This document shows, one piece after another, positions 17,528-21,393 of a DNA stretch of 64,000 bases. The stretch is from a virus. The notes under the pieces were generated by a model, which saw nothing but the letters and a program-made list of their open reading frames with translations, made no database searches and was not told the DNA's origin. The stretch spans positions 1 through 64,000 of the IMG/VR virus record IMGVR_UViG_3300028844_005216; one strand, written 5' to 3'. The position numbers were made by a program, and so were the translations under genes. Numbering within the stretch: the first letter of the stretch is position 1; each line of letters begins with the position of its first letter.

Positions 17528-18232
17528 ATGGACATAAATGCATTCAAGTCAAAAATTGGCGGTTCACTTGCATCTCCCGCAAACTTTCGGGTCATGATAA
17601 GTGGAGCCGTTGTTGATCAAGAAAGCTCTAGAGATCTTGCTATTCTTTGTAATCAGGCACAACTGCCCGGAAGATACTTTCAAACCGCTGACAGAGTAAC
17701 GCACGGTCCAATAACAAAAATCCCATCGGCTTCAATTTTTGATGAAATGATATTGAGCTTCTATTGTCAAGAGGGTATGGGTGTATATGAGCTGTTCACC
17801 GATTGGCAATCATATATTCAGGACAATACAGCATCAAATGAATTTAGCTACTTTGACGATTATGTTTCCGACATCACGATTGAACAATTAACCCCAACCG
17901 GGTCGGTGGCTTATGCGGTAACACTTGTTGATGCGTATCCCAGAATGGTTTCCCCAATGCAATTGGATTGGTCATCAAAAGACAGCTTTCACAATCTTCA
18001 AATATCAATGGTATATCGCTATTGGAGGAAGGTAGAACTTTCGGTTAGTCCATTTAGTAAATTCTTAAATGTCAGCAGCTTGTTTCCCAATTTTGACCTT
18101 GGAGGGGCACTACAACAAACTGGAGTTGCTCTTTTTGATAAGGCTGGCGGAAAACTTATGAGCCAAGTCGGACAAAATATTAGATTTAGTAAGAACATAA
18201 AAGCATCAAAATCAGCAGCACAGCAGGGATAA
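17528..18232 (+). CDS. 54: Baseplate tail-tube initiator, gp54-like
   Basis: The 234-residue product starts MDINAFKSKIGGSLASPANF, followed by CNQAQLPGRYF and an IFDEMILSFYCQEGM strand pair, the tail-tube fold pattern shared by gp19, gp48 and gp54. T4 gp54 is 320 residues and gp19 is 163. Position beside gp48, gp26 and the tape measure favours gp54, the first tube-like ring above the hub. The Ala/Lys-rich C-terminus is likely disordered. A gp19-like tube protein is the alternative, though tube genes normally sit by the sheath gene. Confidence 0.75.
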   Translation: MDINAFKSKIGGSLASPANFRVMISGAVVDQESSRDLAILCNQAQLPGRYFQTADRVTHGPITKIPSASIFDEMILSFYCQEGMGVYELFTDWQSYIQDNTASNEFSYFDDYVSDITIEQLTPTGSVAYAVTLVDAYPRMVSPMQLDWSSKDSFHNLQISMVYRYWRKVELSVSPFSKFLNVSSLFPNFDLGGALQQTGVALFDKAGGKLMSQVGQNIRFSKNIKASKSAAQQG

Positions 18233-18300: not shown

Positions 18301-19029
18301 ATGGCTTTACCGAAACTTGATGTACCCATTTATAAATTAAATATCCCATCTTCGGGAAAAGAGATTTCATATAGACCTTTTCTCGTAAAAGAAGAAAAAA
18401 TTCTTTTGATGGCAATGGAAGGTGGTGATGATAAGGAAATCACAACAGCTATCAAACAAATTATTAACAACTGTGTTGTGGACGATGGTATAGAAGTAGA
18501 TAACATGCCACTATTTGATATTGAATATATGCTGCTTAACATAAGAGCAAGATCAATGGGAGATGTGGTTAAAACCAGCTATGTGAATAAGAAGTGTAAA
18601 CGAGAAGATTGCAGTCCTGTCGAAATTGAAATTGACCTATCAACAATAGAATTATCAACAGACGAAAACCACAAAAGCAAAATTGAGCTAAATGATAAAG
18701 TAGGAATCATTATGAAATATCCAAGCATGTATATGATGGATAAAAAAACTATCGGCAAAGATCGTGACGCTTCGACGGAAGACGTGTTTGAAGTTATTTC
18801 TGAATGCATAGACAAAATCTACGATGCAGATAATGTGTACAGCAAAAGCGATTATACGAAGGATGAACTAAAGGAATTTGTTGATAGCTTCACCTCAGAT
18901 CAGTTCCAACAGATTCAGAAGTTTTTTGACACAATGCCAAAGATGTATAAAGATGTCGTATTTAGTTGTGAAAAATGTAATTACAAAGAGGACATTAAAA
19001 TAGAAGGTCTTGCTGGTTTTTTTACCTGA
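18301..19029 (+). CDS. 26: Baseplate hub assembly protein gp26
   Basis: The product is 242 residues (T4 gp26: 208). The start MALPKLDVPIYKLNIPSSGK, then EISYRPFLVKEEKILLMAME, is the gp26 family signature. Cysteine pairs at KKCKREDC (about 98-103) and CEKCNY (about 224-229) suggest a zinc knot. gp26 helps assemble the hub and is not a major virion protein. AGGAG lies 7 nt before the ATG. The last sense codons form a slippery run, from which a -1 shift would extend the protein by 62 residues into the gp51-like frame. Confidence 0.9.
   Translation: MALPKLDVPIYKLNIPSSGKEISYRPFLVKEEKILLMAMEGGDDKEITTAIKQIINNCVVDDGIEVDNMPLFDIEYMLLNIRARSMGDVVKTSYVNKKCKREDCSPVEIEIDLSTIELSTDENHKSKIELNDKVGIIMKYPSMYMMDKKTIGKDRDASTEDVFEVISECIDKIYDADNVYSKSDYTKDELKEFVDSFTSDQFQQIQKFFDTMPKMYKDVVFSCEKCNYKEDIKIEGLAGFFT
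19017..19023 (+). promoter_or_regulatory. Candidate -1 ribosomal frameshift site T TTT TTT
   Basis: Codons 239-241 of gp26 read GGT TTT TTT, which gives a perfect X XXY YYZ heptamer just two codons before the TGA. Slipping back one base continues at 19023 (TAC CTG ATT ...) in a frame open to 19211. Both P- and A-site tRNAs would re-pair fully. No downstream pseudoknot was worked out. Confidence 0.6.
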
Positions 19030-19211
19030 TTCTCTCTGACCACTCATTAGAGGGAACTTTGAGAATAAACTTTTCACTGATGCAATATCATAATTATACT
19101 TTAGCAGACATTGAGGGTCTGCTTCCGTGGGAAAGAGATTTATATGTTAGTATGGTTATTGAACACATCGAAAAAGAAAAACAAAAACAAGAAGAACGCA
19201 ACAGAGGATAG
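19023..19211 (+). CDS. 51: gp51-like C-terminal extension of gp26 (-1 frame)
   Basis: This frame is open from 18999 and adds 62 codons after the slip site, ending in TAG at 19209-19211. The distinctive part, YTLADIEGLLPWERDLYVS followed by an E/K-rich helix, resembles the short gp51 proteins that follow gp26 in marine T4-like phages and the C-terminal tails of frameshifted tail-assembly chaperones. An internal ATG at 19080 could also give a free 43-residue protein, but it lacks a good ribosome-binding site. The next gene starts 5 nt later, so this frame exactly fills the gap. Confidence 0.6.
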   Translation, partial: YLILSDHSLEGTLRINFSLMQYHNYTLADIEGLLPWERDLYVSMVIEHIEKEKQKQEERNRG

Positions 19212-19216
19212 TTTAA

Positions 19217-20884
19217 ATGAATGTAGTAGACAACGCAAAAACGATGAAATCATTCAACGACTCCATCCAATCTTTCACGACTGGGTTTAAGTCCTATGCT
19301 AATAAGGCTGATCAGGCTGGAGGGGCTGCTATAAGGAGAACTCACGAAGCATTGCCCGGAATTGCAAAAAAGGGAATAGAGACAGCAAAGCTGACCGGAA
19401 AAGATATGAATCAAGCGGTCTTTGAAGGCTCGCCGCTCGGGACGGCAGTTGGCGAATCTGCCATGTCTATGGGAAAATCGTTTCTTGGAATGGAAGACGA
19501 GAAAGAGGATGACAGCACCGTAATTAGTGCAACGGATGGTGCTGGTGAGAATTTAAATGAGTTAAACAAACTTGACGATTTGAAATTTATTTCAGATAAA
19601 ATGTCAACGCTTCTGAATCTGGTAGATAGAATCGAAATCAGTGTTCGGGACAACAACAAGTTGACCATAGCACAAGGAAAAAGAGCCCAGCGGAATAAAG
19701 CAAAAGCAGAAGAAGCAGCAAGAGAAGACGCAGCAGAAATCGTTCCAGCAGATGGTGAGGGTGGTGTTACTGCTTCGACATCCGGTGGTGGCGGGATACT
19801 TGAGTCACTTGGGGGAGTGATGTCCAGTATACCGGGATTCAAAACCATATCAAGTCTTTTCTCTGGAGGTTTAGGTGGGGTAGCTAAAATATTTGGTAAG
19901 TTGTTCTTTCCCATAACAATGCTCATAGGTATTGTATCTTTTGTAACTGGGTTCATGGAGGGATATGAAGAAGGTGGAATTATCGAAGGAATCACCCAAG
20001 GATTTGAATCACTCATAAAAAATCTCGTAGACGTTCCGCTGAACTTCCTTAAAGATGTTGTTGCGTGGATTGCCGGGGCACTTGGATTTGAAGAAGTAGA
20101 AACCCTGTTAAATGATTATGAATTTGATGTTTCAAGCATGGTTCGTCCGGTTATAGATTGGTTTGTGGAGTTAGGAGAAAAAATATCAGGAGCATTTACG
20201 GCTGCAAAGGATTATGTATCAGATAAATTTAGTGGTGCGATGAGTTTCTTCGGATTCGGGGATGATGAAGAAGAAGCAAAGCCGACTCCAGCGTCAAAGG
20301 CACCAGAAGAGAAGAAATTGAGTAGAGACGAACAACTGCTACAGGATTTAGACGAACAAACTGGTGTTCCAAAGTTTTTGCTTAAAAAACATAAAGAAGA
20401 ATATATTGAAGACGAAGATGAAAGAGGCCGACTTGGCGCTATGTACAGAACCAACCGCAGTCCCACGGGTGACAATATAATGTGGGACAAGGAAAACAAG
20501 CAGTATAAGAAAGATACAAGAACCGATGATGAAAGAAAACTCTCTAATGAAGTAGATGAATTTAATAGAGCATCAACGGAAAGTCTAAATTCTCCCGAAG
20601 CGGTAAAAAAACGGGAAGAAGCGATGGCGCGGGAAAATGAAATGCTTCGTGCAGAATACGAAGCGGATCTCATGAATTCTGGAAAAGACCCAAGAGGAGC
20701 AGCCGCAGCCAATATCCAAAATGCAGGAGTCGAGTCTGGAGCGGGTGGTGGTGGAGGCGGATCAACCGTTGTAATTGATCAAAAAGATCAGAGTGTGAGC
20801 CAAGCTGCAAGCAATCTTGTTCCGATGCCATTCCACACTCAAACTGATCCAGCAATGGCTCAAAGCGCAAACGTAGACCTTTAG
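19217..20884 (+). CDS. 29: Tape measure / hub protein, gp29-like
   Basis: The 555-residue product (T4 gp29: 590) is helical and charged, with a central hydrophobic segment at about 235-252 (LFFPITMLIGIVSFVTGF) and amphipathic repeats after it (VDVPLNFLKDVVAWIAGALG). The C-terminus is Gly-rich then hydrophobic. Tape measures typically have one such membrane-active segment, used at DNA ejection. Its place directly after gp26/gp51 supports gp29, which sets tail length from within the hub. Identity rests on architecture and order. Confidence 0.75.
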   Translation: MNVVDNAKTMKSFNDSIQSFTTGFKSYANKADQAGGAAIRRTHEALPGIAKKGIETAKLTGKDMNQAVFEGSPLGTAVGESAMSMGKSFLGMEDEKEDDSTVISATDGAGENLNELNKLDDLKFISDKMSTLLNLVDRIEISVRDNNKLTIAQGKRAQRNKAKAEEAAREDAAEIVPADGEGGVTASTSGGGGILESLGGVMSSIPGFKTISSLFSGGLGGVAKIFGKLFFPITMLIGIVSFVTGFMEGYEEGGIIEGITQGFESLIKNLVDVPLNFLKDVVAWIAGALGFEEVETLLNDYEFDVSSMVRPVIDWFVELGEKISGAFTAAKDYVSDKFSGAMSFFGFGDDEEEAKPTPASKAPEEKKLSRDEQLLQDLDEQTGVPKFLLKKHKEEYIEDEDERGRLGAMYRTNRSPTGDNIMWDKENKQYKKDTRTDDERKLSNEVDEFNRASTESLNSPEAVKKREEAMARENEMLRAEYEADLMNSGKDPRGAAAANIQNAGVESGAGGGGGGSTVVIDQKDQSVSQAASNLVPMPFHTQTDPAMAQSANVDL

Positions 20885-20886
20885 TC

Positions 20887-21393
20887 ATGCCTTGGTTTAG
20901 TTTCTTACAACCAATCGAAACGTGGGAAAACTCAGAGCCACCGGACCCAGAGACTTGGCAATTTATAATGCAGGAACCTGATGCAAATGGGTGGCCGTCT
21001 AACCAAACAAATGTTCCGATCATAGCAGAATCATTCTACTTAAATTGTAACGAATCTTTTGTAGAAAACTTTTGTTATGATGAATTGAGGAAAAAAACAG
21101 ACGAGATCGACCCATTTCTCGATCCCGCACAATCAGAAATAGATTACTGTGTTACCGTAAACTTGAACAGGTGTGTTGAGGTATTCACAGATGATCTTCC
21201 ATATCAAAATGGGTGGTTACAGGCAAGATCATGTGATATAAATCAAGCATCATGCTCACGCTGGTCAAAAGCCACAGTCGTTTCTGAACCAAGTTTTGCC
21301 CTTACATTAACAGTAGTAATTTTGGGTATCGCAGTTTTTCGTATGTTGAAAAACAAAAAGCCCCCCACGCCGAAACGCGAGGGGCTTTTTTAG
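20887..21393 (+). CDS. Cys-rich protein with C-terminal membrane anchor
   Basis: The 168-residue product is not recognised. It has no N-terminal signal but several cysteines (NCNESF, FCYDE, YCVTVNLNRC, SCDINQASC) that could form disulfides or bind metal. Residues ~138-155 form one transmembrane helix (LTLTVVILGIAVF) followed by RMLKNKKPPTPKR. The tail reads SEPS, then hydrophobic helix, then basic cluster, which resembles a PEP-CTERM sorting signal. The terminator stem lies inside its last 13 codons. It is the last gene of the plus-strand late unit; a tail or membrane-interaction role is a guess. Confidence 0.7.
   Translation: MPWFSFLQPIETWENSEPPDPETWQFIMQEPDANGWPSNQTNVPIIAESFYLNCNESFVENFCYDELRKKTDEIDPFLDPAQSEIDYCVTVNLNRCVEVFTDDLPYQNGWLQARSCDINQASCSRWSKATVVSEPSFALTLTVVILGIAVFRMLKNKKPPTPKREGLF
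21355..21391. terminator. Bidirectional rho-independent terminator
   Basis: AAAAAGCCCC pairs with GGGGCTTTTT around a short GC-rich centre, flanked by A- and T-tracts. It works on both strands, between the convergent plus-strand tail unit and the minus-strand gp32. Confidence 0.85.

What the first reader, a model, noticed from the sequence alone, without database searches (positions are those of the whole stretch)
19010..19211. Programmed -1 frameshift likely joins gp26 to a gp51-like tail
The gp26 frame ends GGT TTT TTT ACC TGA. T TTT TTT is an ideal -1 slippery heptamer two codons before the stop. The -1 frame is open from 18999, reads a gp51-like LADIEGLLPWERDLYVS segment and stops at 19209, 5 nt before the next gene. 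The same logic (short product plus frameshifted long product) is known for lambda G/GT tail chaperones. Here it would apply to the baseplate hub chaperone pair of a T4-like phage and give a fusion of about 303 residues.
Basis: partly seen in the sequence, partly recalled or inferred. Interest (0 to 1): 0.8.

Follow-up and report, generated by a model that had tools for sequence, protein, structure and literature searches.

The report
Frameshift-made tail chaperone pair, T4-like phage
One phage gene almost certainly makes two versions of a tail-building helper protein, because some ribosomes slip back one base on a run of T's; the arrangement is real and widely conserved, but this kind of system has already been described for T4-like phages.

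Summary
gp26 (18301-19029) ends GGT TTT TTT ACC TGA; T TTT TTT lies at 19017-19023. The -1 frame is open from 18999 to the stop at 19209-19211, giving a 303-residue fusion. Of 64 gp26 homologues under 80% identical, 61 keep an in-frame T TTT TTN at the gene's end, 52 exactly one codon before the stop; elsewhere in these genes it occurs 19 times in 14,437 codons. The -1 frame before the first ATG is under purifying selection (dN/dS 0.16, no stops). The fusion aligns along its length with T4 gp51 (E 9.5e-21), a natural in-frame gp26-plus-tail protein. T4 gp26 keeps Phe-Phe but spells it TTC TTT, so its slip site is gone. Gene order (tail tube, gp26/tail, probable tape measure) matches lambda V-G-GT-H. 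Best reading: -1 programmed frameshifting makes the short and long tail assembly chaperones. An upstream Shine-Dalgarno-like element is conserved; a downstream hairpin occurs in this clade but is not general. Vladimirov, Gautam and Davidson (Virology 2022) already identified such chaperones in T4-like phages, so this is a well-supported new member of a known kind. Frameshifting itself is inferred, not measured.

The parts
17528..18232 (+). Tail tube-type protein (gp19/gp54-like), upstream neighbour; same place as lambda V
   Evidence: PHROG tail tube E 2.7e-34; Pfam Phage_TTP_2 E 1.8e-7
18301..19029 (+). gp26: short tail assembly chaperone (TAC-N), 242 aa
   Evidence: PF12322 T4_baseplate E 6e-66; phrog_150 E 4.5e-73; only PF12322 copy in the 84-kb record
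19002..19007 (+). Shine-Dalgarno-like AGAAGG, 9 nt upstream of the slip heptamer; proposed stimulator, weak in this genome
   Evidence: best duplex with anti-SD -3.5 kcal here; mean -6.3 in 61 homologues against -2.3 at control positions
19017..19023 (+). Slippery heptamer T TTT TTT
19027..19029 (+). gp26 stop codon TGA, one codon after the slip site
   Evidence: one-codon spacing in 52 of 61 homologues
19030..19056 (+). Stem-loop starting 6 nt after the heptamer (10 bp in the window, 11 bp in the consensus); proposed stimulator
   Evidence: kept in all seven members of this clade (window, L004-L009), nearly invariant; not general in the wider family (p 0.19)
19023..19211 (+). -1 frame tail (gp51-like TAC-C domain), read after the slip, giving a 303-aa fusion
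   Evidence: phrog_634 E 7e-21; dN/dS 0.16 before the first ATG; aligned with the T4 gp51 C-terminus
19217..20884 (+). Probable tape measure protein (555 aa), downstream neighbour; same place as lambda H
   Evidence: phrog_58 tape measure E 1.2e-6 over residues 198-465; weak similarity to Melnitz phage proteins

Best explanation
This is the tail assembly chaperone locus of a T4-like phage related to marine ones. Most ribosomes end at TGA 19027 and make the short chaperone gp26 (242 aa). A minority slip back one base while the two Phe codons sit on T TTT TTT (19017-19023), continue through TAC CTG ATT, and make a 303-aa form carrying a roughly 60-aa C-terminal domain. By analogy with lambda gpG/gpGT, the common part would coat the tape measure protein encoded next door, and the rare C-terminal domain would bring tube subunits to it. 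Shown here: the slip site, the selected -1 frame, full-length homology of the fusion to T4 gp51, and the gene order. Inferred: that slippage happens, how often, that the SD-like element and hairpin stimulate it, and the binding roles.
For: Slip site in 61 of 64 diverse homologues and in all 26 further contigs of a second scan (L111-L136). dN/dS 0.16 and no stops in the -1 frame upstream of the first ATG, against 0.89 and 1.62 with 83 and 58 stops in the other two frames. The internal ATG has no ribosome-binding site (mean duplex 0.0 kcal, against -6.2 for gp26 starts). In 26 of 61 homologues no start codon occurs in the -1 frame before codon 20. SD-like sequence 7-9 nt upstream of the slip site in most homologues, with codon choice beyond the amino-acid need (GAG 24 of 43 there, 311 of 1,414 elsewhere, p 2e-6). 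Fusion aligns with T4 gp51; T4 gp26 and gp51 are paralogues in PF12322. Synteny tube - gp26 - tail - tape measure. Tail assembly chaperones of T4-like phages are published; citing papers mention poly-T slip signals in them (PMC12846349) and the two-gene alternative (PMC10885494).
Against: No direct measurement of frameshifting. In this genome a TTG at 19059 follows AGAGGG with 4 nt spacing (duplex -6.3 kcal), so some separate tail protein could be made; that TTG is replaced by TTA, CTG or another codon in most of the clade. The downstream hairpin is not a general feature. Ackermannviridae homologues have the -1 tail but no canonical heptamer. Foldseek of the gp26 model gave no significant hit (HK97 chaperone ranked third at E 1.9).
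Confidence: 0.92

Rival explanations
1. The tail is a separate small protein (gp51) made by re-initiation at a start codon downstream of the gp26 stop, with no fusion.
For: Many records annotate a separate small gp51. 11 of 61 homologues have an ATG within 12 nt of the gp26 stop, some as an overlapping TAATG. The window has TTG 19059 behind an SD-like AGAGGG.
Against: No start is conserved across the family. The most frequent ATG (codon 20/21) lacks an SD and lies inside the conserved domain. The residues before it are under the same selection as those after it (dN/dS 0.16 and 0.15). It does not explain the T6-7 conservation. In T4 the tail is fused in frame.
Confidence: 0.05
2. Transcriptional slippage on the T run, rather than ribosomal slippage, produces the shifted product.
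For: The window has a run of seven T's.
Against: Most homologues have T6 followed by C (47 of 61), short for RNA polymerase slippage by general knowledge. The codon register X XXY YYZ and the SD-like element at near-fixed spacing are ribosomal signatures.
Confidence: 0.02
3. Sequencing or assembly error, or a decayed gene: gp26 and its tail were one frame and an indel split them.
For: Homopolymer runs are error-prone; T4 gp51 is a single frame.
Against: The same split, at the same place, is found in dozens of independent contigs and in many finished phage genomes from several families, with purifying selection on the -1 frame.
Confidence: 0.01

Closest known systems
Tail assembly chaperones of T4-like phages (TAC-N / TAC-NC; T4 gp26 and gp51), Vladimirov, Gautam and Davidson, Virology 2022
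   Same: Same protein families (PF12322; phrog_150 and phrog_634), same short and long forms; poly-T slip signals in T4-like TAC-N genes are attributed to that paper in PMC12846349.
   Different: T4 itself uses two separate genes on opposite strands, with the long form fused in frame; this phage has one PF12322 gene in the record held and a frameshift.
Lambda gpG/gpGT
   Same: -1 shift near the end of the short chaperone gene, located between tube and tape measure genes, giving a short form plus a form extended by a C-terminal domain.
   Different: Lambda slips on G GGA AAG (from general knowledge), and no sequence similarity was tested or claimed. gp26 is longer and carries Cys pairs resembling a zinc ribbon.
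E. coli dnaX -1 frameshift site
   Same: Architecture of upstream SD-like element, slippery heptamer and downstream stem-loop (dnaX from general knowledge).
   Different: Heptamer A AAA AAG in dnaX; here T TTT TTT, a weak SD-like element and a hairpin seen in this clade but not across the family.
Vandenendeviridae/Andersonviridae chaperone frameshift (phage Adele, PMC12846349)
   Different: Different phage families and a shorter motif.

Membership tests
T4-like tail assembly chaperone (gp26/gp51) | N-terminal part belongs to the gp26/gp51 family (PF12322) | tested here: met
   E 6e-66, 222.6 bits against a cut-off of 24.5; T4 gp26 and gp51 both match the same model
T4-like tail assembly chaperone (gp26/gp51) | Long form carries a C-terminal domain homologous to the T4 gp51 C-terminus | tested here: met
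   hhalign of the fusion profile with gp51: residues 14-286 to 8-244, E 9.5e-21; phrog_634 matches both
Caudoviral tail assembly chaperone in general (lambda G/GT type) | Gene lies between tail tube and tape measure genes | tested here: met
   Tail tube upstream at E 2.7e-34; tape measure downstream at only E 1.2e-6 over part of the protein
Caudoviral tail assembly chaperone in general (lambda G/GT type) | Fold like solved chaperones (HK97, PDB 2OB9) | tested here: inconclusive
   AlphaFold2 model of gp26 alone, pLDDT 86; Foldseek ranks 2OB9 third but at E 1.9, TM 0.41 by target
Caudoviral tail assembly chaperone in general (lambda G/GT type) | Binds tape measure and tube proteins; absent from the virion | not testable with these tools
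   Needs biochemistry
-1 programmed ribosomal frameshift cassette | Heptamer X XXY YYZ in the zero frame, conserved among relatives | tested here: met
   61 of 64
-1 programmed ribosomal frameshift cassette | -1 frame open and under selection as protein | tested here: met
   dN/dS 0.16, no stops
-1 programmed ribosomal frameshift cassette | Upstream SD-like stimulator | tested here: met
   Present in most of the family at 7-9 nt, beyond codon bias; weak in the window itself (-3.5 kcal)
-1 programmed ribosomal frameshift cassette | Downstream structure at 5-9 nt | tested here: inconclusive
   10-11 bp hairpin at 6 nt in this clade, also strong in S-CAM3 and S-8S55, but not above control across the family; pseudoknots not tested
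-1 programmed ribosomal frameshift cassette | Measured production of the fused protein | not testable with these tools
   Needs mass spectrometry or reporters

The most novel reading that the evidence does not exclude
The T4-type 26/51 gene pair arose when an ancestral frameshift gene was duplicated and one copy fused in frame, after which the slip site in gp26 was erased by synonymous changes (GAR TTC TTT) while the Phe-Phe stayed. The other lineages keep a frameshift cassette in which the upstream SD-like element is old and the downstream hairpin is clade-specific. The two-gene solution is published; the synonymous relic and the SD-like element may not be.
Probability: 0.45. Interest if true: 0.4.

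Novelty: new member of a known kind. Interest (0 to 1): 0.27.

Why it matters
It gives a clean, widely conserved example of how tailed phages could set the ratio of two chaperone forms, and shows that the separately annotated 'gp51' of many marine T4-like genomes should probably be read as the frameshifted end of gp26. It also supports a simple explanation for the long-puzzling T4 hub 'catalyst' gp51 as the long chaperone, as already proposed in 2022.

Tried and rejected
A universal downstream hairpin: tested by folding at 4-10 nt after the heptamer in 60 homologues; energies were not lower than at control positions (p 0.19), so it is claimed only for this clade. The consensus fold also paired the SD-like region with the T run; disregarded as G-U-rich and with almost no covariation. 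Apparent broken tails in L022 (8 aa) and L028 (32 aa) are contig ends, not counter-examples. Solved-structure sequence search with the gp26 profile: no hits. Rfam: no hits at 18700-19400. Foldseek of gp26: no significant hit. Full text of Vladimirov et al. 2022 is not held; its content is taken from its title, from papers citing it and from memory of its abstract.

Full report
Observation. gp26 runs 18301-19029 and ends GGT TTT TTT ACC TGA; T TTT TTT is at 19017-19023. The -1 frame is closed by TAA at 18996-18998, open from 18999 and stops at 19209-19211, 5 nt before the next ATG at 19217. The predicted fusion is 303 aa. Every coordinate in the finding checks out.

Identity. gp26 matches PF12322 (T4_baseplate) at E 6e-66 and phrog_150 at E 4.5e-73; the -1 tail matches phrog_634, 'baseplate hub assembly catalyst', at E 7e-21 and, weakly, the C-terminal end of the phrog_150 profile itself. 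The upstream gene is a tail tube-type protein and the downstream gene a weak tape measure match. That is the lambda order V - G/GT - H. The record (84 kb, probably incomplete) holds only one PF12322 gene.

Conservation. 80 IMG/VR loci and named phages were read through the gp26 end. Among 64 homologues below 80% identity, 61 carry in-frame T TTT TTN in the last 14 codons, 52 of them exactly one codon before the stop, against 19 in 14,437 codons elsewhere; in all 61 the codon before ends in T and the first slip codon is TTT. The site is present in Kyanoviridae, in Straboviridae outside the T4 group (phi-ST2 of the KVP40 group, Aeromonas 65, Cronobacter LPCS28), Emdodecavirus, Pootjesviridae, Busanvirus and Menderavirus. 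Relatives share ancestry, so simple probabilities overstate the case, but the families are deeply diverged.

Selection. In 28 homologues whose first ATG lies at the same codon, the -1 segment between the slip site and that ATG has dN/dS 0.16 and no stops; the same DNA read in the other two frames gives 0.89 and 1.62 with 83 and 58 stops. This segment can only be translated if ribosomes arrive from gp26 or start at an unconserved codon. The ATG at codon 20/21 has no Shine-Dalgarno sequence (mean 0.0 kcal, against -6.2 for gp26 starts). In the window a TTG at 19059 does follow AGAGGG (-6.3 kcal), but the codon is not kept in the clade, and AGAGGG is also part of the 3' arm of the hairpin.

Stimulators. 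An SD-like sequence lies 7-9 nt upstream of the heptamer in most homologues (mean -6.3 kcal against -2.3 at controls). It overlaps a conserved Glu-Gly, but codon choice goes beyond that: GAG 24 of 43 here against 311 of 1,414 elsewhere (p 2e-6), and Leu codons ending in G 22 of 35 against 365 of 1,273. In the window it is weak (AGAAGG, -3.5). Six nt after the heptamer the window and its six nearest relatives can form a 10-11 bp hairpin (19030-19056) whose arms are almost invariant, third codon positions included; near-invariance is not covariation. S-CAM3 and S-8S55 have different strong hairpins at the same place, but the family as a whole does not.

The T4 comparison. T4 genes 26 and 51 lie on opposite strands, both match PF12322, and gp51 extends into the tail domain. 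The fusion profile aligns with gp51 through the junction (residues 14-286 to 8-244, E 9.5e-21). In the T4-type gp26 genes examined the Phe-Phe near the C-terminus is kept but spelled TTC TTT after GAG or GAA, so the heptamer is gone. The simplest history is one frameshift gene in the ancestor, replaced in the T4 group by a duplicated, in-frame pair; the direction of change is inferred from the wider spread of the frameshift form, not from a rooted tree.

Known or new. Vladimirov, Gautam and Davidson (Virology 2022, 566:9-15) identified the tail assembly chaperones of T4-like phages. The paper is not held. Papers citing it state that poly-T slip signals are known in T4-like TAC-N genes (PMC12846349) and that some T4-like phages use separate short and fused genes instead (PMC10885494). 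From memory of the abstract, it names genes 26 and 51 and reports frameshifting in several T4-like groups. The present locus is therefore a new member of a known kind.

Limits. No translation data were available. The chaperone role and the lambda-like division of labour are inferred from homology and gene order. The AlphaFold2 model of gp26 (pLDDT 86) found the HK97 chaperone only as a non-significant third hit.

Noticed in passing
L093, L094, L095, L137, L138, L139, L140, L144 (ends of the gp26 genes): Ackermannviridae homologues and Vibrio phage D509 keep the gp51-like tail in the -1 frame but have no X XXY YYZ heptamer, mostly NTT TTY followed by a codon and TAA; some have TAATG, others (CBA120, phiA8-29) no ATG there. 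How their long form is made is unclear.
   Followed up: partly
L089 2486-2519; L055, L067, L072: In pelagiphage Mosig and relatives the same T TTT TTC slip site lies 8 codons before the gp26 stop instead of 1, so the one-codon spacing is not essential.
   Followed up: no
L084 5303-5340 (T4 gene 26 end, minus strand); L099, L103, L107, L108: T4-type gp26 genes keep Phe-Phe at the slip position but spell it TTC TTT after GAG/GAA, which looks like a relic of a lost slip site.
   Followed up: partly
window 20887-21393: 168-aa gene after the probable tape measure gene with no PHROG match at E 0.01.
   Followed up: no
phage records KU686197, OQ504983, AY940168 and others: Annotated gp51 starts in public cyanophage genomes differ from genome to genome and can drop the conserved first 20 residues of the tail; several records leave it out altogether.
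   Followed up: no
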